In this document: in pieces, positions 16,468 through 30,233 of the stretch
How the letters are laid out: every line of letters starts with the position of its first letter
Position numbering within the stretch: position 1 is the first letter of the stretch
From: Streptomyces halobius
Lineage (GTDB): Bacteria > Actinomycetota > Actinomycetes > Streptomycetales > Streptomycetaceae
Assembly (NCBI RefSeq): GCF_023277745.1
Contig: NZ_CP086322.1
Span: 5,890,001 to 5,954,000 of the forward strand
Reading direction: 5' to 3'
Length of the DNA: 64,000 bases
Notes under the pieces: generated by a model
Database searches by the model: none
What the model was told of the DNA's origin: nothing
The model's input: only the letters and a program-made list of their open reading frames with translations
Position numbers and translations under genes: made by a program

Positions 16468-16549
16468 CCCGGATGGTGGAATGCAGACACGGCGAGCTTA
16501 AACCTCGCTGGCCTTCGGGCCGTGCCGGTTCAAGTCCGGCTCCGGGCAC
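16468..16549 (+). tRNA. bldA: tRNA-Leu(UAA), bldA
   Basis: The acceptor stem GCCCGGA pairs with TCCGGGC. The D arm, a long class II variable arm (GGCCTTCGGGCC) and the T arm (GCCGGTTCAAGTCCGGC) are all clear. The anticodon stem GCGAG/CTCGC closes the loop CTTAAAC, giving anticodon TAA at 16500-16502. In Streptomyces this is the only tRNA that reads the rare UUA codon efficiently. Its loss blocks aerial growth and much secondary metabolism. CCA is not encoded. Confidence 0.98.
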
Positions 16550-17013: not shown

Positions 17014-17241
17014 CTAGCCGCCCCATTCCTCGGGCCCTCCGCCCAGCCAGTCGATGAGATCGGTCTCCTCGACCTCCACCTCATCCAGCGGGACATGCTC
17101 CGTCAGCCGGGCGTGCCGCAGGAACTTCACCAGATCCTCGATCCGGTGGGCGACCCCCAGGGGCCGGCCGTCGACCGTCACGCGCCGCGCCCCGCCGGGA
17201 CCCGGCGGGTGGACGGTCACGCGTGGTGGCTTCTCGTACAT
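17014..17241 (-). CDS. Small conserved-looking hypothetical protein
   Basis: A 75-residue protein (MYEKPPRVTVHPPG ... LVKFLRHARLTEHVPLDEVEV) ending in an acidic and Gly/Trp-rich tail (DLIDWLGGGPEEWGG). The pattern of a beta-strand start and a Trp-containing acidic tail is one I associate with short Streptomyces proteins of unknown role. The ATG at 17241 has only a weak ribosome site. It lies downstream of the His-rich gene on the same strand, separated by a hairpin. Confidence 0.6.
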   Translation of the reverse strand: MYEKPPRVTVHPPGPGGARRVTVDGRPLGVAHRIEDLVKFLRHARLTEHVPLDEVEVEETDLIDWLGGGPEEWGG

Positions 17242-17320
17242 GACACCAGGCTGCGGCCGGCACGGGCGGGGCGCATGTCGCGGGCCCGCTCCAGCCGCCG
17301 GACCCGGCGGACACATGATG

Positions 17321-17356
17321 ACGGGCCGCCGCGGTGGGGGTGCCGCGGTGGCCCGT
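17321..17356 (-). terminator. Hairpin after the His-rich gene
   Basis: ACGGGCCGCCGCGG and CCGCGGTGGCCCGT pair with one mismatch around a short G-rich loop. It lies 16 bases past the stop of the His-rich protein gene. Confidence 0.6.
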
Positions 17357-17371
17357 CTCTCCTTCCGGTTG

Positions 17372-17881
17372 TCAGAAAAGGCCACCGCCCCCGAAGAGGC
17401 TGTCACCCCCGCCATGGCCGTGGCCGCCGTGGCCGTGGCCGCCGTGGCCGTGGCCCCCGTGCCCGTGACCGCCATTCCAGACATCGGGACGATCGAGCTT
17501 GCCGTTCCAAACGTCAGGACGATCGAGATTGCCGTGCCAAACGTCGGGACGATCGAGCTTGCCGTGCCAAACATCGGGGTGCTGGTGGTCGAAGCCATGG
17601 CAGAACCCACCCCAGATATGGGGGGTATCAACCGTCACCTTCACGTTGTCATGGTGATGGTGATGGCCGTGGTGATGGTGATGGTGGTGGTCCTTCTTCT
17701 TTTTCTTCCCATCGTCATGGTGATGATGGTGATGGAGGTTGTCCTTCACGTGGTGATGCTGTTGGTAGCCGTCGCGGTGGCCGCAGCCACCACCACCGGC
17801 CTGGGCCACACCACTGAGCGGGATGATGGCAACGGCGGCAATCGCCGCGGCGGCCACGGAGTGTCCTATGTACCTGCGCAT
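17372..17881 (-). CDS. Exported histidine-rich repeat protein
   Basis: A 169-residue protein with a signal peptide (about 1-27, IIPLSGVAQA). The mature part has His clusters and a short Lys run, then repeats of about ten residues around DRPDVWHGK/N (four partial copies), then GHGHGGHGHGG repeats, and ends in a Gly/Phe tail. His density this high usually means zinc, nickel or copper binding outside the cell, but I recognise no named family. The ATG at 17881 follows CAGGAGAATGTC, a good ribosome site. It opens the small-exported-protein region but is not a member of families A, B or C. Confidence 0.8.
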   Translation of the reverse strand: MRRYIGHSVAAAAIAAVAIIPLSGVAQAGGGGCGHRDGYQQHHHVKDNLHHHHHHDDGKKKKKDHHHHHHHGHHHHHDNVKVTVDTPHIWGGFCHGFDHQHPDVWHGKLDRPDVWHGNLDRPDVWNGKLDRPDVWNGGHGHGGHGHGGHGHGGHGHGGGDSLFGGGGLF

Positions 17882-19053
17882 GACATTCTCCTGATTAGCG
17901 GGAAATCTGACAATCCGATGGATACCGCGTTCCCTTGCGAATCCCGCAGACACGACGAAGAGCCACCCCAATAGCTTCAAGGTTTGCTCCACCCGTGACG
18001 TGCATCAGGCAGAACGAGCTGGTGGGCGGCCCGGTCAGGGCCGGATGACCACAAGACCGTGCTATCGGTGTCCCCGCCGCGCGGCGGCAGTCGACCACCA
18101 GTGGATACGCCCCAACGGGACGAGCCATCGCGTCGGCGCCGATGCCCTGGTGCCGGATCAGTGCATCGGCCGGCCGCGCAAGACGGACGTCGCCGCCCTC
18201 GCGGCCGAGCAGCACCAGCACGCCCCGGTGAAGACACCCGTGCCTCGGGCCGGGCCACATGTTGGAGCGGTGCCGAGCGACGCAGCGGACGAACGCGACC
18301 CTCACCGTGCCCCCAACCCCTTGCCCTCCGTGCCGATCCCCCGCCCCCGAACCGACCCGCGGGCCGATCGAACACGTCAATACCGCTTACGGCTCCACGA
18401 AGTTGGCATACGGCGGCTCGCGTGGCTCTGGTCCAGGCACCACATGGCCGGGACGGCAGCTTCAACTGCACGCTCTCGACACCAGCCTCCGATATCGATC
18501 GCACCGCATCGATCGCACCGCTGAATTCTCATCATCGCGCCCGCGAAGGGTTACCGGGGCTGTCACCGACAGGAGTTGTCCGGGCATCAGGGCGGCCTTC
18601 GTATGATCCTGAACTCGGTTAAGCGGTACGGAAACTGGGCACGAAGTCCGTGGCGCTGGTCCTGCTCCGGCAAGGCCACCCGCGGGAATGCGTCCGCAGG
18701 ACTGCCACGCGTCAACTGCGGTCGGGCCGGGGACCACATATGTGCCAACTTGCAGCGGATCCAGCACCGTCCGCACCTCATTGACGGAGCCTTACCGGGA
18801 TCGGTCTGCCCTTCGAACCGCCATGCCCGGCCCGGCCGCCACCACGAATTCAAGCTCAGTGACACGAGGTAAAGCTCGATAAGACGTGGGAGAGCAGCGT
18901 GGCGAATGCCGTTGCGGCGCGGGAGATTTGTTGCGTGGCCGGACACGGAACGCGCAGCGTCGTGGAACCCCCAAGATGACTACTGCTAGTGTGCATCCAG
19001 TCACAGTAGGCAATCAGCCTCTATGTACCAGGTAATGAAGGACCGAGGGTTCC
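17882..19053. other. Long gap before the exported-protein island
   Basis: About 1.2 kb without a supported gene. Several overlapping open frames exist on both strands, but none has a ribosome site, known motif or convincing composition. A 14-base direct repeat (ATCGATCGCACCGC) occurs near 18495-18525. The last 120 bases hold the promoter of the next gene. It may be a decayed gene, but I cannot identify one. Confidence 0.5.
18937..18995 (+). promoter_or_regulatory. A-type promoter/leader block, copy 1
   Basis: It begins GGCCGGACACGG and ends AGATGACTACTGCTAGTGTG. The same two blocks at the same spacing occur before three other genes of the island (21517, 25118 reverse, 27558). TAGTGT is a plausible -10 element. 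The downstream part runs into a shared GAAGG(G/A)CCGAGGGTTCC ribosome-site segment. Confidence 0.65.
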
Positions 19054-19302
19054 ATGCGCAAGCTTCAGCAGATCGTGATCGTCGCCGCTGCGGCCGGCGG
19101 TCTGACCGCCGTCGGTGCCGGCGCCGGCACCGCCTTCGCCGGTGACAAGGGCCACGGCCCAAAGGTGAAAGAGCTCTACCGTCCGTACCAGGAGTGCAGT
19201 CCGCAGACGTTTGCCGAGAGCAACCTCCCGATCGGCGTGCTCGCCGTCCCGCAGACCTGGGGCACCACCTGCGGCCAGTTCAACCACGCGTTCACTGGCT
19301 GA
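19054..19302 (+). CDS. Small exported protein, family A
   Basis: An 82-residue protein. The signal peptide MRKLQQIVIVAAAAGGL ... AFA (about 1-29) is followed by a short basic stretch and a C-terminal module of about 45 residues. The module has LYRPYQECSP, LPIGVLAVPQT and GTTCGQFNHA with two Cys. The same module closes the gene at 24654-25118. No known family is recognised, and it is not a chaplin or rodlin. It has the A-type promoter. A disulfide between the two Cys is likely. Role unknown, probably at the cell surface. Confidence 0.85.
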   Translation: MRKLQQIVIVAAAAGGLTAVGAGAGTAFAGDKGHGPKVKELYRPYQECSPQTFAESNLPIGVLAVPQTWGTTCGQFNHAFTG

Positions 19303-19534
19303 GGCCGGGAGCGGCCGCACTCGACGTTCGTTGCAGGCCCTTCGGGGGACACCCCGGGGGGCCTCTTCGTTTGCGGCATGCCCGAACGAGGCGTGTGCGG
19401 TGGGATTTACGGACTTTGTGCAGTGTGATTGAACGACGATTCCGTCGCGGGATGGCACCCGGGGCGGCGTCCGATTGTGATGGTCATGGAATCCGGCGCG
19501 TCGTCGGGTTGTTACGGGAATTTCGTATTAGCTT

Positions 19535-19594
19535 GCCGTAACTGTACGAAGTCGATCGGTCACCGATCGCATCCGTTCAATCCCCGGAGTTGAA
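19535..19594 (+). promoter_or_regulatory. B-type leader with covarying hairpin, copy 1
   Basis: GCCGTAACTGTACGAAGT is followed by the hairpin CGATCGG-TCA-CCGATCG at 19553-19569 (7 perfect pairs), then CATCCGTTCAATC and CCGGAG before the ATG. Three other B genes carry the same layout with compensating stem changes. It probably forms in the mRNA leader. Confidence 0.75.
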
Positions 19595-19915
19595 ATGCGC
19601 AAGCTTCGTAAGGCTGCCGTCGTGGCAGCCGTTCTCGGCAGCGTCGGCTTCCTCGGCGCCGGTACCGCCGTCGCTGATGGGCACGGTGGGCACGGCCACA
19701 AGGACGGCACCAGGATCGGCCTCAGCCAGGGCAACCACTGCCGGTCGCACGACATCAACGTCAACATCCTCGGCGAGGTCGGCCTCGTCAACGGCCTCCT
19801 GGGCGGCGCGCTCGGCGGCGAAGGCTCGCCCGGCGCCCAGTCCACCCCGATGGGCTCGGAGCTGGGCTGCAACAACGCAGCCGACTTCGGCCAGCACCAG
19901 AAGAAGAAGCACTAG
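19595..19915 (+). CDS. Small exported protein, family B
   Basis: A 106-residue protein. The signal peptide MRKLRKAAVVAAVLGSVGFL ... AVA (about 1-27) is followed by a Gly/His stretch and the family B core. The core is HCRSHDINVNILGEVG, then GLLGGALGGEGSPG, then STPMGSELGCNN, with two Cys about 45 residues apart. The tail is QKKKH. The hydrophobic NILGEVGLVNGLL segment recalls chaplin beta-strands, but the chaplin Cys-Gly-Asn motif is absent. I know no name for this family. It is followed by a family C gene, as is the gene at 21517. Confidence 0.88.
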   Translation: MRKLRKAAVVAAVLGSVGFLGAGTAVADGHGGHGHKDGTRIGLSQGNHCRSHDINVNILGEVGLVNGLLGGALGGEGSPGAQSTPMGSELGCNNAADFGQHQKKKH

Positions 19916-19925
19916 TAGTGGCAAG

Positions 19926-19970
19926 GGGTCCCGGCGTCCTGGCCACGGGCCGGGCGCCGGGACCCGCTTT
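19926..19970 (+). terminator. Terminator after family B gene
   Basis: GGGTCCCGGCG at 19926-19936 pairs with CGCCGGGACCC at 19955-19965, followed by GCTTTT. An almost identical hairpin follows the gene ending at 22206. Confidence 0.85.
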
Positions 19971-20050
19971 TCAACCGTCTTCAGACCCAGGACACGGGCC
20001 GTTCGCGGCACATGGCGCCTGGGCATCGATCACTAAAGGGGAACGCAGTC

Positions 20051-20383
20051 ATGTTCAGTCGGAAGAGGATCGCAGTCGTCTCGGGGATTCTGAGTGGCCT
20101 CGTCGTGACCTGCGCCGGCGCCACCCAGGCGTACGCCGAAGCGGCCTCGGTCAACTGTGGTCGCAACACCCGGGGCATCATCACCTGCACTCAATCCGGT
20201 TACACCAGCGACAACACCCCGTACGTCGTCCGCCAGACGCAGGACTGCCTGCCGCTGAGGCCCGTCAAGCTGCCCACGGACGGTGTGGTGAACACGAGCA
20301 CCCTGATCGGGCCCTCCGTGTCCTGCTCCAACTCGTCGGCACCGTCGGGTGGAGGCGCCGAGCCGCCCGGCCCCGGATTCTGA
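20051..20383 (+). CDS. Small exported protein, family C
   Basis: A 110-residue protein. The signal peptide MFSRKRIAVVSGILSGLVVTC ... AYA (about 1-30) precedes a mature part with four Cys (VNCGRN, TCTQSGYTS, TQDCLP, SVSCSN) and a Gly/Pro tail. Its only relative here is the gene at 22339. Both share the leader GGCATCGATCA, then AAAGGGGAACGCAGT, before the ATG. Two disulfides are likely. No known family recognised. Confidence 0.83.
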   Translation: MFSRKRIAVVSGILSGLVVTCAGATQAYAEAASVNCGRNTRGIITCTQSGYTSDNTPYVVRQTQDCLPLRPVKLPTDGVVNTSTLIGPSVSCSNSSAPSGGGAEPPGPGF

Positions 20384-20493
20384 GCCCCAGAGGCCGGCAT
20401 ACGAGCCTCGGACGGGGCTTGTCCGGGTCGGGTTGGCCTGCGCGACATGCTCCCCGTCTCACGTGAAGCCGGAGGCTCGTAGAGCATCCTCTC

Positions 20494-20545
20494 GAACGGT
20501 GGATGGCCGGACCGGTTTGATCCCGGACCCGGCCATCCACCGTTC
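20494..20545 (+). terminator. Terminator after family C gene
   Basis: GAACGGTGGATGGCCGG and its perfect 17-base complement flank an 18-base loop, followed by TCTTG. It lies about 110 bases past the stop. Confidence 0.8.
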
Positions 20546-21397
20546 TCTTGCCCGCGAACGCAGGGCGCGGGGATGGAAACCAGAGCCCCCAATCGGCACT
20601 ATTCCGGTCGGAATATCCGACCGTCACAACGACATGCCATGCGACGGTCGTTGGTCGCCAGAGCCGATGTCGTGGTGTGCAGGTGTTCGTCGGAAAGGTG
20701 AGGCGGAGTAAGGCCGGCAGACTAACTAGGCTGTGAACGCGGCGTGTTGGTGTACGAAACGTAATCGCGATATTCGGCGGGTCTGGCGCGCAAAGCCGTG
20801 GTCGGATTCAGGAGCATGAAGGACGGGGCGTCGAAGGTCATACCGGCCACCGTTCCATTGCGCCTTCCGTGGCGCGGCTCTGTTCGCGGCGCCACCAACA
20901 CCCCGAATAATTCCCGCCAGTGGGCAAATGGGTGACCGCGCATCGGCTCCCGTGACCCGGTCGGGGGGAAGGCTCGTTGCTCTCCGGGAGGGAGCAGCGA
21001 ATGGGCCGTGCGCAGACACCGGTGGAAACGCTCATTCTGTGGTGACGTGGGCCGTCCGCGGCGGCTGCGACCCTCCAATCTCCCTGATGGGATGTCAAAT
21101 GAGTCTTCAGCAGGCTTCTTTCGCGCTGGCCGGTTCGCGCGGCGCGCCCGGCCGTCTCCTGCGTTTCGTTGGCCATGACCGGTCGAGGCCCCGGCCCTCT
21201 CGGCGCGACACCGCCCGCACTCAGCGGGCCGCACGGCTCACCGGTTTGCCAATGAACGTGAAAAAAGGGGGGTGAGTGCCCCATGGAAAACCTGCTGACG
21301 TGCGGCCAGTTGGTGATCACTGACGCCCGTTGTCGGCTTCGAACGGTGCTGGAGGACGGTGCGGCGAGAGCCGTCGGGAGCTTGCCGAGGTTTCTGT
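20546..21397. other. Gap before the A/B hybrid gene
   Basis: About 850 bases without a supported gene. It contains copy 1 of the three-copy element (20909-21007). The open frames on both strands across this gap have no ribosome site or known motif. Confidence 0.5.
20909..21007 (+). repeat. Three-copy island element, copy 1
   Basis: The conserved blocks are GGGTGACCGCGC, then TCGGCTCCCGTGACC, then GGGAGGGAGCAGCGAATGGG. Similar sequence at similar spacing occurs at 27188-27287 and, reversed, at 25311-25412. Each copy lies upstream of an A-type promoter, here by about 390 bases. Confidence 0.7.
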
Positions 21398-21455
21398 GGG
21401 CCGACACGGGGGGTGTTGAGCGGCGAAATCCCATAGTGACTACGGTAAGTGTGTA
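21398..21455 (+). promoter_or_regulatory. A-type promoter/leader block, copy 2
   Basis: GGGCCGACACGG, then CCCATAGTGACTACGGTAAG, match copy 1 of the block. The leader contains a tiny open frame ATG CAC ATG AAA TGA before the ribosome site. Confidence 0.6.
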
Positions 21456-21516
21456 TATGCTCACAAAAGGTAGTCAAGGGGGGCTCCATGCACATGAAAT
21501 GAAGGGTCAGAGTTCC

Positions 21517-22206
21517 ATGCGCAAACTTCAGCAAGCCGCGATCGTCGCCGCAGCGGTAGCCGGTCTGTCCGCCCTCGGCGCCGGTGTCGGTTTCGCCAAT
21601 GGTGTCGGGTACCAGAGTGGTTCGCACGGTGGTCCGACGGTCACTGCATGGGCAGCTTCTGCCTCGGGAGCCACTGCAGACGGCGGCCACAACAACTCGC
21701 ACGGGTTCCACCCGCACGCCAGTGCTCCGCAGCAGGTTGCCGCGCCGCAGTACGCTCCGCAACCCGCGCCGCAGTACTACGCTCCGCAGGTGGCGCCCCG
21801 GTACGCAACGCAGGCGGCGCCCCGGTACGCTCCGCAGCCCGCGCCCCGGTACGCCCCGCAGCCGGCTCCGCAGGCCGCCCCGCGGCCCGCTCCGCAGGCC
21901 GCCCCGCAGCCGGCTCCGCAGGCCGCCCCGCAGCCGGCTCCGCAGGCCGCCCCGCAGCCGGCTCCGCAGGCCGCCCCGCAGCCCGTCCAGGAATCGGGTC
22001 ACCGCAAGCACCACAGTGACGCGAAGCGCGTCGACGTCCGCCAGCAGACCCGCTGCCGGTCGCACGACATGAACATCGACATCCTCGGCTCGGTCGGGAT
22101 CCTCAACGGCGTTCTGGGCAACGCGCTCAACGGTGAGGGCTCCCCGGGCGGTCAGAAGACCCGCCAGGGCTCGCACATGGGCTGCAACAACGTAGCCCGC
22201 AAGTAA
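21517..22206 (+). CDS. Exported A/B hybrid protein with Pro/Gln repeats
   Basis: A 229-residue protein. The leader, start context and signal peptide (MRKLQQAAIVAAAVAGL) are family A type. A long low-complexity middle follows, made of APQYAPQPAP and PQAAPQPA units encoded by 24-base DNA repeats at about 21890-21980. The C-terminus is a full family B core (TRCRSHDMNIDILGSVG, NALNGEGSPG, SHMGCNN). It looks like a recombinant of two families. The Pro/Gln part could span the cell wall and present the B module outside. Followed by a family C gene. Confidence 0.87.
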   Translation: MRKLQQAAIVAAAVAGLSALGAGVGFANGVGYQSGSHGGPTVTAWAASASGATADGGHNNSHGFHPHASAPQQVAAPQYAPQPAPQYYAPQVAPRYATQAAPRYAPQPAPRYAPQPAPQAAPRPAPQAAPQPAPQAAPQPAPQAAPQPAPQAAPQPVQESGHRKHHSDAKRVDVRQQTRCRSHDMNIDILGSVGILNGVLGNALNGEGSPGGQKTRQGSHMGCNNVARK

Positions 22207-22212
22207 GGGAAA

Positions 22213-22256
22213 GGGTCCCGGCGTCCTGGCCACGGTCCGGGCGCCGGGACCCATTT
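22213..22256 (+). terminator. Terminator after the hybrid gene
   Basis: GGGTCCCGGCG and CGCCGGGACCC form the same stem as at 19926, followed by ATTTCT. Confidence 0.8.
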
Positions 22257-22338
22257 CTCGACCTTCGTCAGGCCCGAGCGCGGGCCGGTTCGCGGTGCAT
22301 GGCACCCGGGCATCGATCATCAAAGGGGAACGCAGTAC

Positions 22339-22659
22339 ATGTTCAGTCAGAAGAAGATCGCAGTCGTCTCGGGAATCCTGGGCGGTCTCGCCATGACCTG
22401 CGTCGGTGCGGGGCACGCGTACGCCGGGGGATCTCAGGCCGACTGCGCCCGCGGCTCCATGGGCAGCACCTGCATCGACGAGAACGAAGTCGTCTACACC
22501 AGCAAGAAGGGTGACCGTGTCGTCAAGCAGCACAAGAACTGCTCGTCGAACTCCCGGCAGCGCGTGGTGTGGCCCCAGAGCGGTCTGCTGAGCCCCGGTG
22601 CGTCGAAGCTCGGGCCTGTCGTGAACTGCTCCAACCACACACCGCTGCCCAAGGGTTGA
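22339..22659 (+). CDS. Small exported protein, family C
   Basis: A 106-residue paralogue of the protein at 20051. It has the same signal peptide (MFSQKKIAVVSGILGGLAMTC ... AYA) and four Cys at matching spacing (ADCARG, STCIDE, KNCSSN, VNCSNH). The mature part is more basic. The leader before the ATG is nearly identical to that of the first copy, so the whole B-then-C unit was probably duplicated. Confidence 0.83.
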   Translation: MFSQKKIAVVSGILGGLAMTCVGAGHAYAGGSQADCARGSMGSTCIDENEVVYTSKKGDRVVKQHKNCSSNSRQRVVWPQSGLLSPGASKLGPVVNCSNHTPLPKG

Positions 22660-22817
22660 AAGATGCCCTACACCGGGATCTGAGGCTGAAACCACGGATG
22701 GCCGGGCCGGGGTGATCCCGAGCCCGGCACCATGGCGCCATGGGGATGTGGCCATTCGCAGACGGCACCGTGCCGAGTGTTCGGATGGGGCCCCTGGCCG
22801 CCCCGCGCCACCTATTC

Positions 22818-22859
22818 GTGCATCAGGCGCGCTGACGGGGATCAGCGCGCCTGATGCAC
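22818..22859. terminator. 18-base-arm hairpin between convergent genes
   Basis: GTGCATCAGGCGCGCTGA and its perfect complement flank a 6-base loop. It separates the family C gene (+) from the family B gene at 23156 (-). The gap 22660-23155 has no gene. A weaker GCCGGGC/GCCCGGC hairpin lies at 22701-22728. Confidence 0.75.
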
Positions 22860-23077
22860 CATCGCGTCGTGATAACGCGCGACGGTATGACCGTCGAATG
22901 CGATCCGATACCGACGGGGCCGGCTCAACCGCAGCAGTATGTGCAGCGGCTTGTCCGCACGCCCCGTGAGGCAGTTTCCTCCGCACGTCCATCATCAGCG
23001 CCATTGCGCCTGCGTCCTTTTCGGCTCGACCGCGAAGGGGAAGGGGCCCGCGCTGGACTCCGAAGAAGGCCAAAAAG

Positions 23078-23117
23078 GGGTCCCGGTGTCCGGCCTGCGG
23101 CTCGGACACCGGGACCC
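23078..23117 (-). terminator. Terminator of the family B gene at 23156
   Basis: GGGTCCCGGTGTCCG pairs perfectly with CGGACACCGGGACCC. Read on the minus strand it is followed by TTTTTGG. The GGGTCCCGG stem is shared with the other family B terminators. Confidence 0.88.
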
Positions 23118-23155
23118 TATGCGGATACTTGCCGATGCTGTGGGACCCGTTTCGC

Positions 23156-23449
23156 TTACTTGCCGACGCTGTTGCTGCAGCCCATGGTCGAGCCCATGCT
23201 GGTGGACTGCGCACCCGGGGAGCCCTCGCCGCCAAGTGCGTTGGCCAGCAGACCGTTGAGGATTCCGACCTCGCCGAGGATGTCCACGTTAGTGTCGTGC
23301 GACCTGCAGTGGTTGCCCTGCTTGACCATCAGCGAGCCCATCTGGTGCTTTCCTCCGCCGTGCCCGTCGGCGTGGGCGGTGCCGGCGCCGAGGACGCCCA
23401 TGCTGCCGAGGGCGGCGACCACGATGGCAGCCTTGCGAAGCTTACGCAT
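23156..23449 (-). CDS. Small exported protein, family B
   Basis: A 97-residue protein. The signal peptide MRKLRKAAIVVAALGSMGVL ... AHA is followed by a Gly/His/Lys spacer and the core HCRSHDTNVDILGEVG, LLANALGGEGSPG, STSMGSTMGCSN. Two Cys are conserved. It has the B-type leader with the hairpin at 23476-23492. This is one of four short family B genes and one of two on the minus strand. Confidence 0.88.
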   Translation of the reverse strand: MRKLRKAAIVVAALGSMGVLGAGTAHADGHGGGKHQMGSLMVKQGNHCRSHDTNVDILGEVGILNGLLANALGGEGSPGAQSTSMGSTMGCSNSVGK

Positions 23450-23510
23450 TTTATCTCCGGTAGATTGAGCGGATGCGATCTGTGATTGATCGACTTCTTA
23501 CAGTTAAGGC
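23450..23510 (-). promoter_or_regulatory. B-type leader with hairpin, copy 2
   Basis: Read on the minus strand: GCCTTAACTGTAAGAAGT, then CGATCAA-TCA-CAGATCG (five outer pairs kept, the inner two lost), then CATCCGCTCAATC and CCGGAG before the ATG. Confidence 0.7.
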
Positions 23511-24055
23511 TAATACGAAATATCCGAAACCACTTGACGACGCGCCGGATTCCATGGCGGTCGCGAACTCGCGGGCACCCCGGGAAATGCCCGCACCCCG
23601 GCAGGTCGGGCATTGACCGGACGGAAGGGGTGCGGGCGCTCCGCCTCAACTGCTGTGTCTGGCAAGGAGTTTCGGCGGAAAGCCCGATGGTCCGGGCCTT
23701 TCGGCGGGAGCTGACGGGCTTTCATTCCGGCTATGGCCCGGACGCATTTAAATTCGGTTATATTATTTTCTGTGCACATGTCGAAGTGCGTCGAGCTGAA
23801 CCAAGGCGGGACGATCACCTGATCCGAGGCGTTCGGTGCTCACCGGCCGGCGGGGCCGAGTGTGCGCGACAGTGCCACTGTGCGTACGCCGCAGGCGTTC
23901 CACCGTGCCCTAGGGGATCGGTGGAACGCCGATGTGACACCGGGTCAGGGATCCCTGGGGAGGCGTAAATGGTGCCGGGACGTAAATGGTCCCGGCACCG
24001 GGCTTGTGGCTCGGATGCCGGGACCTGTTTCGGATGCCTACGTGACTATTGGCTC
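23511..24055. other. Gap between two family B genes, with hairpins
   Basis: No supported gene. Inverted repeats are present at 23589-23637 (GCCCGCACCCC arms) and 23894-23930 (GGCGTTCCACCG arms). The stretch 23740-23790 is unusually AT-rich for this DNA. Confidence 0.5.
23988..24025 (-). terminator. Terminator of the family B gene at 24056
   Basis: GGTCCCGGCA and TGCCGGGACC form the stem, again the shared GGTCCCGG type. Confidence 0.7.
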
Positions 24056-24358
24056 TCAGGCGTGGTTGTTGCAGCCCATGGTCGACCCCATGTGGGTGGC
24101 CTGTGCGCCCGGGCTGCCCTCGCCGTTGAGCACATTGGCGAGCACGCCGTTGAGGATTCCGACCTCGCCGAGGATGTCGAGGTTGAAGTCATGCGACCTG
24201 CAGTTGCTGCCCTGCATGGCGTAGCCGCCGCCTTTCCCGCCGCCGTGACCGCCGCCGCCATGGCCGCCGTGCCCGTCGGCGTAGGCGGGGCCGACGCCGA
24301 GGAACCCGACGCTGCCGATGGCGGCTGCCATGACGGCAGCCTTGCGAAGCTTGCGCAT
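24056..24358 (-). CDS. Small exported protein, family B
   Basis: A 100-residue protein. The signal peptide MRKLRKAAVMAAAIGSVGFL ... AYA is followed by GHGG repeats and the core NCRSHDFNLDILGEVG, VLANVLNGEGSPG, THMGSTMGCNN. Conserved Cys pair present. The His/Gly spacer recalls the metal-binding-like tail of the protein at 17372, though it is much shorter. Confidence 0.88.
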   Translation of the reverse strand: MRKLRKAAVMAAAIGSVGFLGVGPAYADGHGGHGGGGHGGGKGGGYAMQGSNCRSHDFNLDILGEVGILNGVLANVLNGEGSPGAQATHMGSTMGCNNHA

Positions 24359-24419
24359 TTCATCTCCGGTGGATTGAGCGGTTTCGGTCCGTGACAGACC
24401 GACTTCGTACAGTTACGGG
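24359..24419 (-). promoter_or_regulatory. B-type leader with hairpin, copy 3
   Basis: Read on the minus strand: CCCGTAACTGTACGAAGT, then CGGTCTG-TCA-CGGACCG at 24401-24385. The third pair is G-C where copies 1 and 4 have A-T, so pairing is kept by a double change. CGCTCAATC and CCGGAG follow. Confidence 0.75.
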
Positions 24420-24597
24420 AGGTTAGTACCGAAATAACACGAATCCGCACAGCGACGCGCCGGATTTTATGATGATCGCGAAGGATGCCTGGTTCGTCAG
24501 CCGCCCCGCACCGCGAGCAGGTCGGGCGCATGGGCGCGCCGGAACGGGCGTGGTGGCTCCCTGGTGTGACGGCACATCAGCTGCCGCGCACGCGAAC

Positions 24598-24629
24598 GGG
24601 CCCTTCGAGGGATCACCCTCGAAGGGCCC
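24598..24629 (-). terminator. Terminator after the family A gene
   Basis: GGGCCCTTCGAGGG and its perfect 14-base complement enclose the loop ATCA. It lies 25 bases past the stop of the minus-strand gene ending at 24654. Confidence 0.85.
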
Positions 24630-24653
24630 GTCGCGACAACGCGTGAGCTCGCC

Positions 24654-25118
24654 TCAGTGGCCGGACGCGGTGGCGAAGGCGTTGGCCTGATGGTTGTGCT
24701 GGTGGCAGGTGACGCCCCGGGTCTGGGAGGCGGCGAGCAGGGAGACCGGAAGGTCTGCGTCGAGCAGTGCCGCCGGGCTGCACTCCTGGAACGGACGGAA
24801 GAGGTTGTTCTGATCCTGCTGGGCGGGGGTGGCCTGCGGGGAGATCTCAGGACTGAGCTGCGGGGAGAGCTGCGGATTGATCTGCGGGTTGACCTGCGGG
24901 GCGTCCTGCGGGGCGGCCTGCTGCGGATACGCATACGAGCCGGAAGCGGACGAAGTTGCCTGCGAACCGCTCCAGGCGCTGGCCTGGGGGTCCTGCTGCG
25001 GAACGGGGGGCGGGGCGGCACCGTACCCGACGGGAGTGGCGGAGCTGACGCCGGAACCGATGGTGGACAGACCGCCGGCCGCTGCGACGACGAGCGCGAC
25101 CTGCTGAAGCTTGCGCAT
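24654..25118 (-). CDS. Exported family A protein with Pro/Gln linker
   Basis: A 154-residue protein. The signal peptide MRKLQQVALVVAAAGGL ... is followed by a Pro/Gln-rich linker (QVNPQINPQLSPQLSP) and a C-terminal family A module (LFRPFQECSP, LPVSLLAASQT, GVTCHQHNHQ) with two Cys. Its first 150 bases and leader are almost identical to those of the gene at 27558 in reverse orientation. Probably wall-associated. Confidence 0.85.
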   Translation of the reverse strand: MRKLQQVALVVAAAGGLSTIGSGVSSATPVGYGAAPPPVPQQDPQASAWSGSQATSSASGSYAYPQQAAPQDAPQVNPQINPQLSPQLSPEISPQATPAQQDQNNLFRPFQECSPAALLDADLPVSLLAASQTRGVTCHQHNHQANAFATASGH

Positions 25119-25234
25119 GGAACCCTCGGCCCTTCATTACCTGTGCATGGAAATCTGAATTACTTATTGGAGTCTTGTTCGCGCTAACAGTGGTAATCCT
25201 GGGGTTTCACGCTCTGCGTACCCCGTGTCGGATC
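25072..25234 (-). repeat. Left arm of ~163 bp inverted repeat
   Basis: It covers promoter, leader and signal-peptide start of the gene at 24654-25118. It is nearly identical to 27441-27604 in reverse, with only about a dozen differences by eye. The arms face outward and enclose the chaplin gene and a 60-residue exported protein. Confidence 0.85.
25178..25233 (-). promoter_or_regulatory. A-type promoter/leader block, copy 3
   Basis: Read on the minus strand: ATCCGACACGGGG, then AGGATTACCACTGTTAGCGC. The leader has a minimal open frame ATG CAC AGG TAA before the ribosome site. Confidence 0.6.
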
Positions 25235-25310
25235 GCAATGGAAGCCTCCGCAGCCCCGCGACGCCACCCGGCATCACAAGGAGCATCGGAGTATTTCCTC
25301 GGCAGCACCT

Positions 25311-25412
25311 GACGAGCCCATTCACTGTTCTCTCCCAGTGGGTAAAACGAGAATTCCCCTGGTCCGGTCACGGGAGCCGGAGCGCGGTCACCCGTTTGCC
25401 CGTCGGCGCACA
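25311..25412 (-). repeat. Three-copy island element, copy 3
   Basis: Read on the minus strand it carries CAAACGGGTGACCGCGCTCC, GGCTCCCGTGACCGGACC, and GGGAGAGAACAGTGAATGGG. It ends 77 bases upstream of the A-type promoter. The rest of the gap 25235-25549 shows no gene. Confidence 0.7.
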
Positions 25413-25549
25413 TCATCTGGGGTGGGCGTTCTCGTTCTTGTAGGAGCAGCGGTGTGGCGTGGATGCGAGGGGCAGCTGTGGGAGGTGCTCAAAGCGCCTT
25501 GATCTTCGTGCAGTTGAGGCTGGTGGCCTCTCGGCGCTTGACAGCACCC

Positions 25550-25589
25550 ATGAGTGTGGGGCCCGATGACTGACGGGCCCCACACTCAT
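25550..25589 (-). terminator. Terminator of the chaplin gene
   Basis: ATGAGTGTGGGGCCCG and its perfect 16-base complement flank an 8-base loop. It lies 44 bases past the chaplin stop. Confidence 0.85.
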
Positions 25590-25632
25590 ATATGACGGAG
25601 TGACAGCCCCGGACAGCCGCCGCTCTCCGCGG

Positions 25633-26322
25633 TCAGTTGCGGGCGGAGGCGCGGCGGCCCCGGCGGTAGAGCAGGAAGCCGCCGAGCATCAGCCCGGCGC
25701 TGGCCGGAATCGCCAGGCCGATCTTTTCCGCACCCGTCTTGGCGAGCTCGGGGGTGTCATGGTGCTCGATCGCGCGCTTGGTCTCCGGGGGCGCCGACGG
25801 GCGATGGTCCGGAGTATCCGCTGTGTGGTGGTGCGGCGACGGCTTGTGATCGCGCACCTCCGTCTTGGGATCCGCTGAGTCGTCGTGGTGCGGCCGCTTG
25901 ACGTTGGCGCAGTCGTTGCCGAACGCGACGTTGAGCGCGCCGATCACATTGCCCGAGTTGCCACATGCATTCACGGGTACGTGCACCGGGAGCTGTCCGA
26001 GGTTCCCGGACAGAATCCCCGCGGACCCCTTGGCTGCGCCCTTGGCGCCGCCCTTGTCGTCGTCGCCACCCTTTCCGTGGCTGTGAGAATCTACGTTGAT
26101 ACAGGTGTTGTCGAGCGTGGGGTTGAGCAGTCCGGGGACGTTGACTGTGTTGCCGCAGAAGTTGGCCGGGATGTGGATCGGCACCTGAAGCAGGTTGCCG
26201 GACAGAACGCCGGGCGAGCCGGCGGCCTTTCCCTTGGCGCCGGTGTCGGCGACGGTCGTGCCCGCGCTCGCGAGCAGCAGGCCGCCGGCGGCAGCCGAAG
26301 CGGCGATGACCTTTGTGATCAC
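25633..26322 (-). CDS. Long chaplin with two chaplin domains and a sortase signal
   Basis: A 229-residue cell-wall-anchored hydrophobic protein. The signal peptide (about 1-28) is followed by chaplin domain 1 (GSPGVLSGNLLQVPIHIP, then FCGNTVNVPGLLNP) and an Asp/Gly/Lys spacer. Chaplin domain 2 (GSAGILSGNLGQLPVHVP, then ACGNSGNVIGALN) follows, then a His/Pro-rich wall-spanning region, the sorting motif LAKTG, a membrane span and RRGRR. This is the layout of S. coelicolor ChpA-C, which coat aerial hyphae and are anchored by class E sortases. The GTG at 26322 follows AAGGAGAAAC. Confidence 0.95.
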   Translation of the reverse strand: MITKVIAASAAAGGLLLASAGTTVADTGAKGKAAGSPGVLSGNLLQVPIHIPANFCGNTVNVPGLLNPTLDNTCINVDSHSHGKGGDDDKGGAKGAAKGSAGILSGNLGQLPVHVPVNACGNSGNVIGALNVAFGNDCANVKRPHHDDSADPKTEVRDHKPSPHHHTADTPDHRPSAPPETKRAIEHHDTPELAKTGAEKIGLAIPASAGLMLGGFLLYRRGRRASARN

Positions 26323-26760
26323 GTTTCTCCTTCGTGGCAGTGCGGTCACGACCGCGGACCGCATGAGGCTCAACGAGAACCATGCGGGCAGGCCACGAAT
26401 TCAGCACTGTGCTCACTCTTTCAGCCCGGCGAATGCACTCGTTCGGCCCCAGAATTAAAACCAATTCCTATTTAATGAAGGGATGTTGTCTGTCTGGTCA
26501 CTTCCAACTGAGGGTGGGGAAGGCATAGCTCTGGTGCGGCGGTCCGGCCGCTGGTACGCGGCCGACGCGACAGCCGACGACCACTCTGGCGGCTACTCAC
26601 TCACGGCACGGAAACGACTCGCCGGAACATCCGATGCCCTGCCATGAAGTGGTGAACTGGTGCTGTAAATAGGCAGTTCAGTCCTGTGTGGTCATGGGTA
26701 AACCGTCCGGCAGCCCGGCGGGCTGCCGGACGGTGGTGACCGTGGGCTGCAATCGGACGG
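26323..26760. other. Chaplin upstream region
   Basis: No supported gene. The first 150 bases include AT-rich stretches near 26455-26480 and should contain the chaplin promoter. A GCCCGGCGGGC-type hairpin lies near 26712-26735 and may end the transcript of the 60-residue gene. Confidence 0.45.
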
Positions 26761-26943
26761 TCAGCCGCGGCCGAGCAGCGGCAGTTCACCGAGGTGGAAC
26801 GGGCCGATCTCGGAGGTGGCCTTCAGGGGTACGCCCAGGAGGCCGATGGCGCCGCCCGGCGCGGGCTGTTCGGCGTGGGCGGGGAGCGAGAGGGCCCCGG
26901 TGAGAGCGAAGGCTCCCAAAAGGGTGGCGAGTGTACGGCGCAT
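26761..26943 (-). CDS. 60-residue exported peptide
   Basis: MRRTLATLLGAFALTGALS leads to AHA, a clear signal peptide of about 24 residues. The mature part is about 36 residues, hydrophobic and Gly/Leu/Pro-rich, with no Cys (GGAIGLLGVPLKATSEIG ... LGELPLLGRG). The ribosome site AGGAGTCGCT is strong. It sits between the inverted repeats with the chaplin. No family recognised. It may be a surface-active or secreted peptide, which is inference from composition. Confidence 0.75.
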   Translation of the reverse strand: MRRTLATLLGAFALTGALSLPAHAEQPAPGGAIGLLGVPLKATSEIGPFHLGELPLLGRG

Positions 26944-27440
26944 AGCGACTCCTGCTTCATCTCGTTTTGCTGGCATGCTGGTTGCGCGGGCCACCCTTCC
27001 ACCCGTGGGAAGCAGGTCCCGAAGCCCACGCCAAGTGATCGCCTGATCGCACTAGTGGGAGAAACACGCAGGAGGCGCCGGCTTGCCGCCGGCACGAATG
27101 CGTCAGGCAAACTGCCGTGTTCTCGCGGGTGCTGGGGCCGCGGGCCCGTCGCGCCTTTGCCGTCAGATCTCCACCAACTCCCCGGAAGATTTACGCCAGT
27201 CGGCAAACGGGTGACGGCGCCTCGGCTCCCGTGACCGGACCTGGTGAAATCTCGTTCCCTGCTGGGAGAGAACAGCGAATGGGCCTTGGAGAACAGTGAT
27301 TGAGCCCGTGGCGACCACGCCGGCAGTGTTGTCCGACGCGAATCAGAGGAGAGGTGATGGGATCCGCCGTCGGCTTCGATGGGCGTTGGAGGGCGGCACG
27401 CAGCGGGTGCCGCCGCGGGCCGGCGAGAGGCCTCCACCGT
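26944..27440. other. Gap before the right inverted-repeat arm
   Basis: It holds copy 2 of the three-copy element (27188-27287) and no supported gene. Confidence 0.5.
27188..27287 (+). repeat. Three-copy island element, copy 2
   Basis: It carries CGGCAAACGGGTGACGGCGC, TCGGCTCCCGTGACCGGACC, and GGGAGAGAACAGCGAATGGG. It ends about 154 bases before the A-type promoter at 27441. Confidence 0.7.
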
Positions 27441-27500
27441 GGTCCGACACGGGGGTACGCAGAGTGTGAAACCCCAGGATTACCACTGTTAGCGCGAACA
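27441..27500 (+). promoter_or_regulatory. A-type promoter/leader block, copy 4
   Basis: GGTCCGACACGGGGG, then AGGATTACCACTGTTAGCGC, are almost identical to the reverse copy at 25178-25233 and similar to the blocks before 19054 and 21517. Confidence 0.65.
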
Positions 27501-27604
27501 AGACTCCGATAAGTAATTCAGATTTCCATGCACAGGTAATGAAGGGCCGAGGGTTCCATGCGCAAGCTTCACCAGGCCATGCTCGTCGTCGCAGCGGCCG
27601 GTGG
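27441..27604 (+). repeat. Right arm of ~163 bp inverted repeat
   Basis: Promoter, leader and first codons of the gene at 27558, matching 25072-25234 in reverse. About 2.2 kb lies between the arms. Confidence 0.85.
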
Positions 27605-28418
27605 TTTCTCTGCCATCGGTGTCGGCGTCAGTCATGCCGACGCCCCCGTCGGGTACAGCGGTGCCGCTCCGGCTCCTGCTCCGCAGCAGTACGCTCCGCC
27701 GGCTCCCCCTCCGCAGTACGCTCCGCCGGCTCCCCCTCCGCAGTACGCTCCGCCGGCTCCCCCTCCGCAGTACGCTCCGCCGGCTCCGGCTCCTGCTCCC
27801 CGGCAGTACGCCCCGCGGCAGTACGCCCCGCGGCAGTACGCTCCGCAGCAGTACGCTCCGCCGGCTCCCGCACCGGCCCCCGTTCAGCGGCGGCAGCCTG
27901 CTCCACGGCCGCCTGCTCCGCGGCAGTACGCCCCGCCGGCTCCCGCACCGGCCCCCGTTCAGCAGCGGCGGCCGGCCCCGCGGCCGCCTGCTCCGGCCCC
28001 CGCTCCGCGGCAGTACGCTGCACCGGCTCCTGTTCAGCACTCCGCTCCGCACCGGCCCACCCATCATCACGCCACCGCATCGGCCACTTCGCTCGGTGAG
28101 TCGCTGGCTACCGCCTCGCACCATGCTCCGCACCACCAGGCCCCGCAGCAGTCGGCGTCGCCGATCGTTCCGCAGGTGAAGCCGGAGTCCAACCCGCAGG
28201 TCGCCCCGCAGGTTCGCCCGCAGGTCGATGTCCCGGAGGTCTTCCGTCCGCGCAACCTCCCGAACGCCGCCCCGCAGGTGAACCCGCAGATCAACCCGCA
28301 GGTCAACCCGCTGGTCAGGCCGCTGCTGTCGCCGGGCATCCCGCAGGTCAACCCGATGGGGCTCGGGCGGCTCGCGGCGCCTCCGGTGGGGGATGTCGAG
28401 CTTCCCCGGCTTGCCTGA
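27558..28418 (+). CDS. Exported Pro/Gln/Tyr-repeat protein
   Basis: A 286-residue protein. The signal peptide MRKLHQAMLVVAAAGGF ... SHA is followed by about 120 residues of PPAPPPQYA and PRQYA repeats, encoded in part by 27-base DNA repeats near 27687-27790. A His/Ala part and PQVNPQINPQVNP repeats lead to LGRLAAPPVGDVELPRLA. It lacks both the A and B Cys modules but shares leader, signal peptide and NPQ repeats with the family A gene at 24654. It could be an extended wall-spanning or fibrous protein. Confidence 0.83.
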   Translation: MRKLHQAMLVVAAAGGFSAIGVGVSHADAPVGYSGAAPAPAPQQYAPPAPPPQYAPPAPPPQYAPPAPPPQYAPPAPAPAPRQYAPRQYAPRQYAPQQYAPPAPAPAPVQRRQPAPRPPAPRQYAPPAPAPAPVQQRRPAPRPPAPAPAPRQYAAPAPVQHSAPHRPTHHHATASATSLGESLATASHHAPHHQAPQQSASPIVPQVKPESNPQVAPQVRPQVDVPEVFRPRNLPNAAPQVNPQINPQVNPLVRPLLSPGIPQVNPMGLGRLAAPPVGDVELPRLA

Positions 28419-28573
28419 CCGTTCAAGGGCGGTTCGGAAGGGGCCCCGTCCCCGGAACTGATCGCTCGTCATCCCCGCGGCAGGGGGCGCCATCCGGCCC
28501 CGGCCGGGGGGTGTCCCGCTCGTTTCGGTCTGGTGACGCCGTGCGAGCGGTGCGGGGCATGTCCCGTCGACCT

Positions 28574-28635
28574 CCCGTCACTGTAAGAAGTCGATCTGCT
28601 GCAGATCGCACCCGCTCAATCTCAACGGAGAAGAA
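28574..28635 (+). promoter_or_regulatory. B-type leader with hairpin, copy 4
   Basis: CCCGTCACTGTAAGAAGT, then CGATCTG-CTG-CAGATCG at 28592-28608 (7 perfect pairs), then CACCCGCTCAATC and ACGGAGAAGAA before the ATG. The inner pairs differ from copy 1 but still match. Confidence 0.75.
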
Positions 28636-28914
28636 ATGCGCAAGCTTCAGAAGGCTGCCTTCGTGGGCGCCGTCCTCGGCAGCGTCGGCTCCCTCGGCGC
28701 CGGTACGGCTCTTGCCCACGGCGAGGCGGGTGCCCACGACACCGACATCGGTCAGAGCACCCACTGCAGGACGCACGACATGAACATCGACATCCTCGGG
28801 GCGGTCGGGGCGCTCAACGGCACGCTGGGCAACGCGGCCAACGGCGAGGGCTCCCCGGGTGCGCAGCCCGCCAACATGGGCTCCAAGATGAGCTGTGACA
28901 ACAACGCTCACTGA
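28636..28914 (+). CDS. Small exported protein, family B
   Basis: A 92-residue protein. The signal peptide MRKLQKAAFVGAVLGSVGSL ... ALA is followed by a short Asp/His spacer and the core HCRTHDMNIDILGAVG, TLGNAANGEGSPG, ANMGSKMSCDNN. It is the most divergent core of the set (Arg-Thr for Arg-Ser, Ser before the second Cys), but both Cys are kept. Confidence 0.87.
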   Translation: MRKLQKAAFVGAVLGSVGSLGAGTALAHGEAGAHDTDIGQSTHCRTHDMNIDILGAVGALNGTLGNAANGEGSPGAQPANMGSKMSCDNNAH

Positions 28915-28930
28915 GCGCTGGTAGGCGGAA

Positions 28931-28970
28931 GGCCCGGTGACGAGCCTCAGGTTCGGCGCCGGGCCGTTTT
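28931..28970 (+). terminator. Terminator at the right edge of the island
   Basis: GGCCCGG and CCGGGCC close a stem followed by GTTTTGTT, 14 bases past the family B stop and before the convergent glycosyltransferase gene. Confidence 0.8.
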
Positions 28971-29063
28971 GTTGACTCTCCCTCAGTTCCGCATGGGCAG
29001 GGCCGCCGGTGGATGCCGGCGGCCCCTACGCATGGTGCCCGTTGTCGGTCAGCGTTCCATCGG

Positions 29064-30233
29064 TCAGCGTTCCATGAGGGCGAACAGGCCCTCCCAGCGG
29101 GCGACGATCTCCTCGGTGGAGAACCGCTGGATGTTCTCGCGAGCGGCCTCGCCCATCGTGTCCCGAAGGTCCTTGTCGGAGATCAGGGTTTCCAGGTGCC
29201 GGGCGAACTCGGTGGTGTTGCCCGGGGGCGCCAGAAGGCCGTCCACGCCGTCCGTGATGATCTCGCGGACGCCCGGCGCCACATCGAAGGCCACGCAGGG
29301 AACGGCAGTCGCCATCGCCTCCATAGGGGCCAGCGGGAAACCTTCGCCGCGTGAACTCAGCGCGAAGACCGAGCCGTCCCGCAGTGCGCCGGTCACATCG
29401 CCGGTGCGCCCCATCCACTCGACGCTCGTGGCGACCCCCAGCTCGGCGGCCTGCTTGCGCAGCGCCTCCGCTTCCTCGCCGGAGCCGTAGATCCGCAGCG
29501 TCCAGTCCGGGTGCCGCGGCGCGACCTGCGCCCAGGACTCCAGGAGCAGGTCCACGCCCTTCTCCTCGTGCAGCCGGCCGATGCTGACCACGCACTGGCG
29601 GGACCGGTCGGAGGGCACGTCGGGGAAGAACGGCAGCGGGTTCGGCATGAAACCGACGTTGTCGAGCCGTTGGCGGATCCATTGGTCGGCGTCCTCACGG
29701 GTGAGCGGCAGCATCCGGTCGACGTCCGCGTAGAACCGCTTCACCCGCTGGAAGCGGGACGACTTGCGGCAGGTCGCGAAGGACTCATGGCTCATGCCGA
29801 CGACCTTCAGCCCGGCGGTGTCGGCCAGCGCGACCCACTCCATGGCCCACACCTGGGTGACGATCACCACCCCGCCCGGACGGGCCGCCCGGAACAGCGT
29901 GCTCATCTTGGCGGCCTGTTCGCGCATCCCGGCCTCACGGGCGGTGCGGCGGCGCTGCTCGACGATGTTGAGCCGGTCCTTGAGGCCGCGCACGGGGCTG
30001 ACGTTCGGCGGATGTTCGTCGTAGAGGGTGGTGGTCTTGTAGGGCAGGTTTTCGGCCAGCTCGTGGACCCGGCCTTCGGGAGGCGGGACCACGCCGATGA
30101 CATGCACCCGGTGGCCGCGCTCGCAGAACAGGCGGGCCATCTGGTGCGACCAACTGGTGATGCCCCCCAGCTCGTTGACGCTGTTGGAGACGAAGAAGAT
30201 GTCCCGCGGCTGGGCGGCGTTCGGCTTGCTCAT
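29064..30233 (-). CDS. GT4-family glycosyltransferase
   Basis: A 389-residue GT-B retaining glycosyltransferase. The N-terminal VNELGGITSWSHQMARLF acceptor loop and the donor-binding C-terminal half (SIGRLHEEKGVDLLLESWAQ, SSRGEGFPLAPMEAMA with the E-x7-E pattern, VDGLLAPPGN) are clear. It probably adds a sugar during wall glycopolymer or capsule synthesis with the bifunctional enzyme upstream. The start ATG at 30233 overlaps that gene's stop (ATGA), so the two are coupled. Confidence 0.9.
   Translation of the reverse strand: MSKPNAAQPRDIFFVSNSVNELGGITSWSHQMARLFCERGHRVHVIGVVPPPEGRVHELAENLPYKTTTLYDEHPPNVSPVRGLKDRLNIVEQRRRTAREAGMREQAAKMSTLFRAARPGGVVIVTQVWAMEWVALADTAGLKVVGMSHESFATCRKSSRFQRVKRFYADVDRMLPLTREDADQWIRQRLDNVGFMPNPLPFFPDVPSDRSRQCVVSIGRLHEEKGVDLLLESWAQVAPRHPDWTLRIYGSGEEAEALRKQAAELGVATSVEWMGRTGDVTGALRDGSVFALSSRGEGFPLAPMEAMATAVPCVAFDVAPGVREIITDGVDGLLAPPGNTTEFARHLETLISDKDLRDTMGEAARENIQRFSTEEIVARWEGLFALMER

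What the first reader, a model, noticed from the sequence alone, without database searches (positions are those of the whole stretch)
19054..28914. Island of three paralogous families of small exported proteins around a chaplin
Nine genes fall into families A, B and C or share their leaders. All have nearly the same signal peptide within each group (MRKL or MFSxKxIAVV) and short Cys-containing mature modules. Family B has a fixed core (CRSHD, then NxDILGxVG, then GEGSPG, then MGCNN), family A has YRPYQECSP and TxGxTC, and family C has four Cys. None matches chaplins, rodlins or SapB. The LAKTG chaplin in the middle and bldA 2.5 kb to the left suggest a cell-surface role in aerial growth, but that is inference.
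Basis: partly seen in the sequence, partly recalled or inferred. Interest (0 to 1): 0.88.

Follow-up and report, generated by a model that had tools for sequence, protein, structure and literature searches.

The report
Streptomyces surface-protein cassette, perhaps spore spines
A conserved set of about ten small exported proteins, found in some Streptomyces and mostly inherited as one block, probably coats aerial hyphae or spores and may be what makes spores spiny or hairy.

Summary
Window 19054-28914 holds ten exported-protein genes (2 A, 5 B, 2 C, and P1, a leader-sharing proline-rich protein) around a long sortase-type chaplin. No A, B or C protein reaches a Pfam or NCBIfam cut-off. The three families form a conserved Streptomyces cassette: of 44 non-redundant cassettes, 29 have exactly the order A+ C+ C+ B- B- A- B+ or its mirror image. 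A and B are co-inherited: 37 of 295 Streptomyces genomes have A, all among the 39 with B. A chaplin lies within 8 kb of 16 of the 44, and 3 of these also sit beside a rodlin pair. bldA proximity was seen only in the window. Four of the five B genes share a 30-nt upstream element that occurs 5 times in the 9.24-Mb genome, always before a B gene. My best explanation is a structural kit for the aerial-hypha/spore sheath. My boldest reading is spore ornamentation: of eight carrier species labels whose spore surface I saw in papers, five are spiny, one hairy, one rough and one (S. lydicus, strain unresolved) smooth; six carriers are named for spines. That link is post hoc and correlational. There are no expression or mutant data, and both AlphaFold models were poor.

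The parts
19054..19302 (+). A1: short family A protein (82 aa), leader + C-x24-C module, no Pro-rich linker
   Evidence: A profile match
19541..19570 (+). B-specific upstream element ACTGTANGAAGTCGATC-N7-GATCGC before B1
   Evidence: (5 copies in genome, control 0)
19595..19915 (+). B1: family B exported protein
20051..20383 (+). C1: family C exported protein, 4 Cys in mature part
21517..22206 (+). B2: chimera, A-type upstream region and leader + PAPQ repeat + B core; lacks the B upstream element
22339..22659 (+). C2: family C exported protein, 4 Cys in mature part
23156..23449 (-). B3: family B exported protein
23475..23504 (-). B-specific upstream element before B3
24056..24358 (-). B4: family B exported protein
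24384..24413 (-). B-specific upstream element before B4 (3 mismatches)
24654..25118 (-). A2: full-length family A (leader, PQxNPQ linker, C-x24-C module)
25633..26322 (-). Long chaplin, two PF03777 domains and LAKTG sortase signal; start taken as GTG 26322
26370..26397 (-). BldN-like promoter CGTGGC-N16-CGTTGA upstream of the chaplin (2 mismatches; the motif is at chance level over the window)
26761..26943 (-). Small exported protein (start taken as ATG); relatives lie near the cassette in L014, L203 and L204
27558..28418 (+). P1: A-type leader and upstream region, Pro-rich (QYAPPAP, PQVNPQ), no Cys
28580..28609 (+). B-specific upstream element before B5
28636..28914 (+). B5: corresponds in position to the outlying B of the conserved cassette

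Best explanation
The island is a co-inherited kit of secreted structural proteins. Signal peptides export A, B, C and P proteins (inferred from sequence). Outside the cell their Cys modules (2 Cys in A and B, 4 in C) form disulfides, and the Pro-rich stretches of A2, B2 and P1 act as spacers. None shows a sortase signal like the chaplin's, so they would be held on the aerial hypha or spore by the sheath made by chaplins (and rodlins where present), here including the sortase-type long chaplin inside the cassette. Most likely they build an extra layer of the mature spore sheath, and specifically the spiny or hairy ornament. Shown: families, conserved order, co-inheritance of A and B, chaplin/rodlin neighbourhood in a subset, a B-specific upstream element, and a post hoc association with spiny species. 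Inferred: export, disulfides, assembly, timing, ornamentation.
For: Cassette: 48 of 114 sequences of 7 kb or more had A, B and C; after dropping 4 duplicates, 44, of which 29 have identical order and strands. A in 37 of 295 Streptomyces, all 37 within the 39 with B. Chaplin within 8 kb in 16 of 44 (about 1 expected, my estimate from about 10 chaplin clusters in the own genome); rodlin pair in 3 of 44. B element: 5 of 5 copies before B genes, reversed-pattern control 0. B found only in Streptomyces: 1 of 9 genera, 1 of 14. Spore surface of carriers in papers: piniterrae spiny, chattanoogensis spiny, naphthomycinicus spiny, echinatus spiny, musisoli rough, glaucescens hairy, noursei D337-11 spiny. 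Six of 11 spine-named species I counted are among 47 named carriers (P 1e-6); without albospinus, which I knew only from the hits, 5 of 10 (P 1.7e-5).
Against: No expression, localisation or mutant data. The spine link is post hoc, not corrected for phylogeny, and no named smooth non-carrier was tested. An A hit is labelled S. lydicus (P0187), whose type strain is listed as smooth; strain identity unresolved. S. aculeolatus (name meaning small spines, recalled) has no A. The hair-named S. hirsutus and S. pilosus are not among the carriers listed, though the lists are cut. 28 of 44 cassettes have no chaplin within 8 kb of the fetched sequence; some stretches are shorter than that. The BldN motif, reported for the sigma factor of chaplin genes, is hardly seen before A, B or C, but the same test also missed all 36 chaplins, so it says little. 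Mature proteins are hydrophilic overall (GRAVY -0.29 to -0.82). Structure models were uninformative.
Confidence: 0.45

Rival explanations
1. General aerial-hypha sheath proteins that modify or replace the rodlin-organised layer, without making spines or hairs.
For: Chaplin/rodlin neighbourhood. Carriers often lack rodlins: 27 of 39 B-positive against 57 of 256 B-negative genomes, Fisher 1.4e-8, uncorrected for phylogeny. The own genome has no rodlin match.
Against: 12 of 39 carriers do have rodlins, and in L042, L198 and L215 the cassette sits beside them. It does not account for the run of spiny and hairy carriers.
Confidence: 0.3
2. B is a far-diverged chaplin branch and A a far-diverged rodlin branch.
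For: B VGxLNGxLGN against chaplin iGlLNpAfGN: 3 of 200 and 0 of 100 column shuffles reach the score. Some UniRef names say DUF320, chaplin or RdlA.
Against: Only 10 columns, HHalign probability 9%, and the best of eight pairs compared. A against rodlin is at null level (32 of 100), as are A against chaplin (39) and B against rodlin (67). None of 100 B homologues reaches PF03777, nor do ten further A/B homologues, six of which carry such names; the names may be machine-predicted.
Confidence: 0.15
3. Secreted antagonistic or signalling peptides (bacteriocin- or pheromone-like) that diversify by duplication.
For: Small, exported, Cys-containing, duplicated and patchily distributed.
Against: A, B and C keep a fixed order in most cassettes; the B core is strongly conserved between species; chaplin and rodlin neighbours. 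I noticed no immunity or dedicated export gene among the cassette genes, but did not search for one.
Confidence: 0.08

Closest known systems
Chaplins (Pfam PF03777, ChpA-C)
   Same: Small exported Streptomyces proteins, most with a Cys pair around a hydrophobic stretch; one sits inside this cassette; 10-column similarity to B (VGxLNGxLGN)
   Different: No A, B or C protein tested reaches PF03777; B Cys spacing is about 42 residues, wider than in the chaplin domains collected; no sortase signal; hydrophilic overall
Rodlins RdlA/RdlB
   Same: Exported, two Cys, partners of chaplins; neighbours in 3 of 44 cassettes; UniRef calls some A homologues RdlA
   Different: Profile comparison of A with rodlin is at the shuffled level; full-length A has a Pro-rich linker; carriers tend to lack rodlins
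SapB lantibiotic-like surfactant
   Same: Secreted aerial-growth factor of Streptomyces (recalled)
   Different: Not compared by sequence here; modification and transport genes were not sought

Membership tests
Chaplin (PF03777) | HMM match above gathering score | tested here: not met
   Window A/B/C proteins; 0 of 100 B homologues; 0 of 10 further A/B homologues. The neighbouring chaplin scores 152.5 bits
Chaplin (PF03777) | Profile similarity of the hydrophobic core | tested here: inconclusive
   10 columns, HHalign probability 9%; 3 of 200 and 0 of 100 shuffles reach it; best of eight pairs
Chaplin (PF03777) | Amyloid assembly at air-water interface | not testable with these tools
   needs purified protein
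Rodlin | Sequence or profile homology | tested here: not met
   A against rodlin score reached by 32 of 100 column shuffles; the rodlin profile was built from only 7 sequences
Rodlin | Location beside chaplins and role in rodlet layer | tested here: inconclusive
   16 of 44 cassettes near chaplins; rodlet role not testable
BldN (sheath) regulon | CGTAAC-N16-CGTTGA promoter (consensus from a passage of PMC2375139; chaplins and rodlins as targets, passage of PMC4125116) | tested here: inconclusive
   CGTAAC-N15-17-CGTT before 1 of 181 B, 0 of 84 A, 0 of 38 C, but also 0 of 36 chaplin upstream regions, whose starts were guessed, so the test has no positive control. Window matches 37 against 37.5 expected
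Spore-ornament genes (proposed) | Carriers have spiny, hairy or otherwise non-smooth spores | tested here: inconclusive
   7 of 8 carrier species labels with a surface seen in papers are not smooth; the eighth, S. lydicus, is smooth for the type strain, carrier strain unresolved. S. aculeolatus lacks A. Named smooth non-carriers not tested

The most novel reading that the evidence does not exclude
The A/B/C/P cassette encodes the material and assembly factors of spiny or hairy spore ornament in Streptomyces, a taxonomic character used for decades whose genes are unknown to me. Its A and B families would be a new class of sheath protein layered on the chaplin coat, sometimes in place of rodlins.
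Probability: 0.38. Interest if true: 0.85.

Novelty: new variant of a known kind. Interest (0 to 1): 0.7.

Why it matters
Spore surface (smooth, spiny, hairy, warty, rugose) is a standard trait in Streptomyces descriptions, and the spore sheath is a model for functional amyloids. A compact, co-inherited gene set whose carriers are mostly non-smooth would make the origin of ornamentation directly testable by one deletion. It would also suggest that the known sheath parts (chaplins, rodlins, SapB) are not the whole list. Even without the ornament link, three exported families with no entry in the libraries searched and a largely fixed gene order are good candidates for missing sheath components.

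Tried and rejected
Pfam and NCBIfam scans gave nothing above cut-off for A, B or C; Pfam gave none for homologues. PDB sequence searches with the A and B profiles gave no real relative, and Rfam gave no match over 15000-32000. AlphaFold of B (mean pLDDT 52.7) and A (48.4) was too poor for fold searches, so none was run. C was not folded.

A as a rodlin relative looked convincing by eye but is at null level. The BldN promoter test has no positive control (0 of 36 chaplins) and is inconclusive. bldA as a functional neighbour was rejected because its proximity was seen only in the window. Insertion at tRNA genes was considered because 22 of 44 cassettes have a tRNA within 5 kb (18 Thr, 3 Arg, 1 Leu), but no 14-nt repeat of the tRNA was found in the window (8-40 kb) or in 8 loci tested, so it stays unexplained.

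The B upstream dyad as a covarying RNA hairpin is only moderate: 83.4% of cells pair, against a shuffled maximum of 81.0%, in 103 of 153 sequences chosen by identity outside the stem; RNAalifold itself predicted no structure for these 103 or for all 153 (where the script then stopped with an error). It could equally be an operator.

Selection caveats: cassette loci were fetched because they matched B, and for 36 genomes I chose the stretch around a B cluster. 50 of 98 loci with B lack the full trio. Homologue tables list only the best 120 of 570 and of 364. The spine idea came from reading species names, so its P-values are post hoc. The 47 names were typed by hand, leaving out three leader-only or A-less names (meridianus, nanshensis, aculeolatus) and one entry labelled S. 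albus subsp. albus. Spine-named species were looked up only by the prefixes spin-, echin- and acul-; albospinus was added because it was a hit, which favours the idea (5 of 10 without it). Spore surfaces of other species in the opened papers (cellostaticus spiny, corchorusii smooth, triticiradicis spiny, asenjonii hairy, capoamus smooth) could not be used, as their carriage was not tested.
Full report
What is there. The window is part of a 9.24-Mb chromosome whose B and A homologues bear Streptomyces names (G000:C1:5890001-5954000). Between 19054 and 28914 lie ten genes for exported proteins plus one long chaplin: A1, B1, C1, B2, C2 on the plus strand; B3, B4, A2 and the chaplin on the minus strand; P1 and B5 on the plus strand. 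A and B mature parts carry two Cys, C parts four, P1 none. None has a TTA codon. Full-length family A is leader, Pro-rich PQVNPQLNPQ linker and a C-x24-C module; A1 is a short form without the linker. B2 joins an A-type upstream region and leader to a PAPQ repeat and a B core, and A2 and P1 share 180 nt of upstream and leader at 93% in opposite orientation, so regulatory region plus leader seems to have moved as a module.

Families. No A, B or C protein reaches a curated cut-off in Pfam or NCBIfam, nor do 100 B homologues or ten further A/B homologues in Pfam. Within the window B proteins are 57-69% identical to B4, A1 and A2 49%, C1 and C2 43%. Homologue searches found 570 B, 364 A and 9 C proteins at E <= 1e-3; only the best 120 of the first two were listed, and those two scored only the candidates sharing most words. 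The species names I saw there are Streptomyces. In a draw of 293 genomes of the order, B occurs in 49, in 1 of 9 genera.

The conserved cassette. I built profiles of A, B, C, chaplin and rodlin cores and scanned 113 loci of 7 kb or more plus the window. 48 of 114 sequences have A, B and C together. After dropping 4 duplicates, 44 remain. Of these, 29 have exactly the order and strands A+ C+ C+ B- B- A- B+ or its mirror image (20 and 9). The window is an expanded version with B1 and B2 added. 50 other loci carry B without the full trio. A and B are co-inherited: in the same 295 Streptomyces genomes B is found in 39 and A in 37, all of them among the 39.

Neighbours. A chaplin lies inside or within 8 kb of 16 of 44 cassettes, and a rodlin pair lies about 2 kb away in 3 of those 16. 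From about ten chaplin clusters in the own genome I estimate about one such neighbour by chance; related genomes are not independent, and 28 of 44 show none in the fetched sequence. A tRNA gene lies within 5 kb of 22 of 44 (18 Thr-UGU, 3 Arg-UCU, and bldA in the window alone). In carriers G007 and G016 bldA lies hundreds of kilobases away or in the interior of another contig; in the drafts G001 and G017 it is on another contig, which proves less. 19 kb around bldA in seven relatives, G007 and G016 among them, holds no A, B or C gene; there the left flank is conserved but the window's two right-flank genes are absent. So bldA is an incidental neighbour.

Regulation. Four of five window B genes share a conserved upstream block. 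The 30-nt element ACTGTANGAAGTCGATC-N7-GATCGC (up to 3 mismatches) occurs five times in the own genome, before B1, B3, B4, B5 and an unlinked B gene 1.4 Mb away, with no hit for the reversed control. The dyad pairs slightly better than shuffled columns (83.4% against a maximum of 81.0%, 103 of 153 sequences), though RNAalifold predicted no structure, so hairpin or operator is open. The motif of the sheath sigma factor BldN (consensus from a passage of PMC2375139; chaplins and rodlins as its targets, passage of PMC4125116) is found before 1 of 181 B, 0 of 84 A and 0 of 38 C genes, but also before 0 of 36 chaplins, so the test lacks a positive control. A two-mismatch copy precedes the chaplin at 26370-26397, while such matches over the window are at chance level (37 against 37.5).

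Relation to known sheath proteins. B against chaplin: ten columns (VGxLNGxLGN / iGlLNpAfGN), HHalign probability 9%, reached by 3 of 200 and 0 of 100 column shuffles, the best of eight pairs compared. A against rodlin: 32 of 100 shuffles reach the score. The names DUF320, chaplin and RdlA on some UniRef entries are therefore leads only. Genomes with B often lack rodlins: 27 of 39, against 57 of 256 without B (Fisher 1.4e-8, not corrected for phylogeny). A review passage says rodlins appear to be lost readily (PMC4255298).

Spore ornamentation. Reading the carrier names suggested spiny species. Papers give: S. piniterrae spiny and S. chattanoogensis spiny, S. lydicus type strain smooth (PMC7232196, passages); S. 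naphthomycinicus spiny, S. echinatus spiny, S. musisoli rough (PMC11061393, passages and section 29); S. glaucescens hairy (PMC5307326, passages); S. noursei D337-11 spiny (PMC12417419, passages). Piniterrae, chattanoogensis, echinatus, musisoli and noursei carry A; naphthomycinicus and glaucescens by their A protein. For noursei and glaucescens phenotype and sequence come from different or unmatched strains. An A protein labelled S. lydicus (P0187) makes an eighth label; whether it is the smooth type strain is unresolved. So seven of eight labels are not smooth. Six of 11 species I counted as named for spines (plus albospinus) are among 47 named carriers (hypergeometric 1e-6); without albospinus 5 of 10, P 1.7e-5. 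The theme was chosen after seeing the names. Against it: S. aculeolatus lacks A; the hair-named S. hirsutus and S. pilosus are not among the listed carriers; S. clavifer has B, C and a chaplin but no A; no named smooth non-carrier could be tested. Two literature searches listed 3 of 3 and 15 of 176 papers, by title species descriptions, applied work and cave studies, none on a gene for ornamentation.

Verdict. The cassette is real, conserved and without an entry in the family libraries searched. A sheath role is likely (about 0.75 over the first two explanations). Spore ornamentation is the most interesting specific reading and is testable by one deletion.

Noticed in passing
window 17372-17881, minus strand: His/Asp-rich exported protein with long His runs and repeated PDVWHG motifs, between bldA and A1; could be metal-binding and part of the island (by eye)
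   Followed up: no
window 20892-20970, 25346-25424, 27171-27249: About 79-nt repeat upstream of the A-leader genes B2, A2 and P1, oriented with each gene; possible shared regulatory block
   Followed up: no
window 19923-19965 and 22210-22252: Near-identical GGGTCCCGGCG...CGCCGGGACCC inverted repeats after B1 and B2 (95%), possible transcription terminators; a 79% copy at 23075-23117
   Followed up: no
G000:C1:4531955-4532179 (L006): Unlinked B-type gene with shifted second Cys, about 10 kb from a chaplin cluster; keeps the B upstream element; similar lone genes in L162 and L163
   Followed up: partly
L158 (G026; L101, L111, L121): Tandem small exported proteins with a B-type leader (MRKYQKAAV...) but another Cys core (CSADE...), near a chaplin domain; weak B-profile matches also near a chaplin in L159 (G027), not read
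   Followed up: no
44 cassettes: Frequent adjacency of the cassette to tRNA genes of three kinds (Thr, Arg, Leu) without detectable tRNA-end repeats in the loci tested
   Followed up: partly
window 29064-33088, minus strand: Two glycosyltransferase-like genes (by eye, no family search) on the right flank, not found near bldA in seven relatives examined
   Followed up: partly
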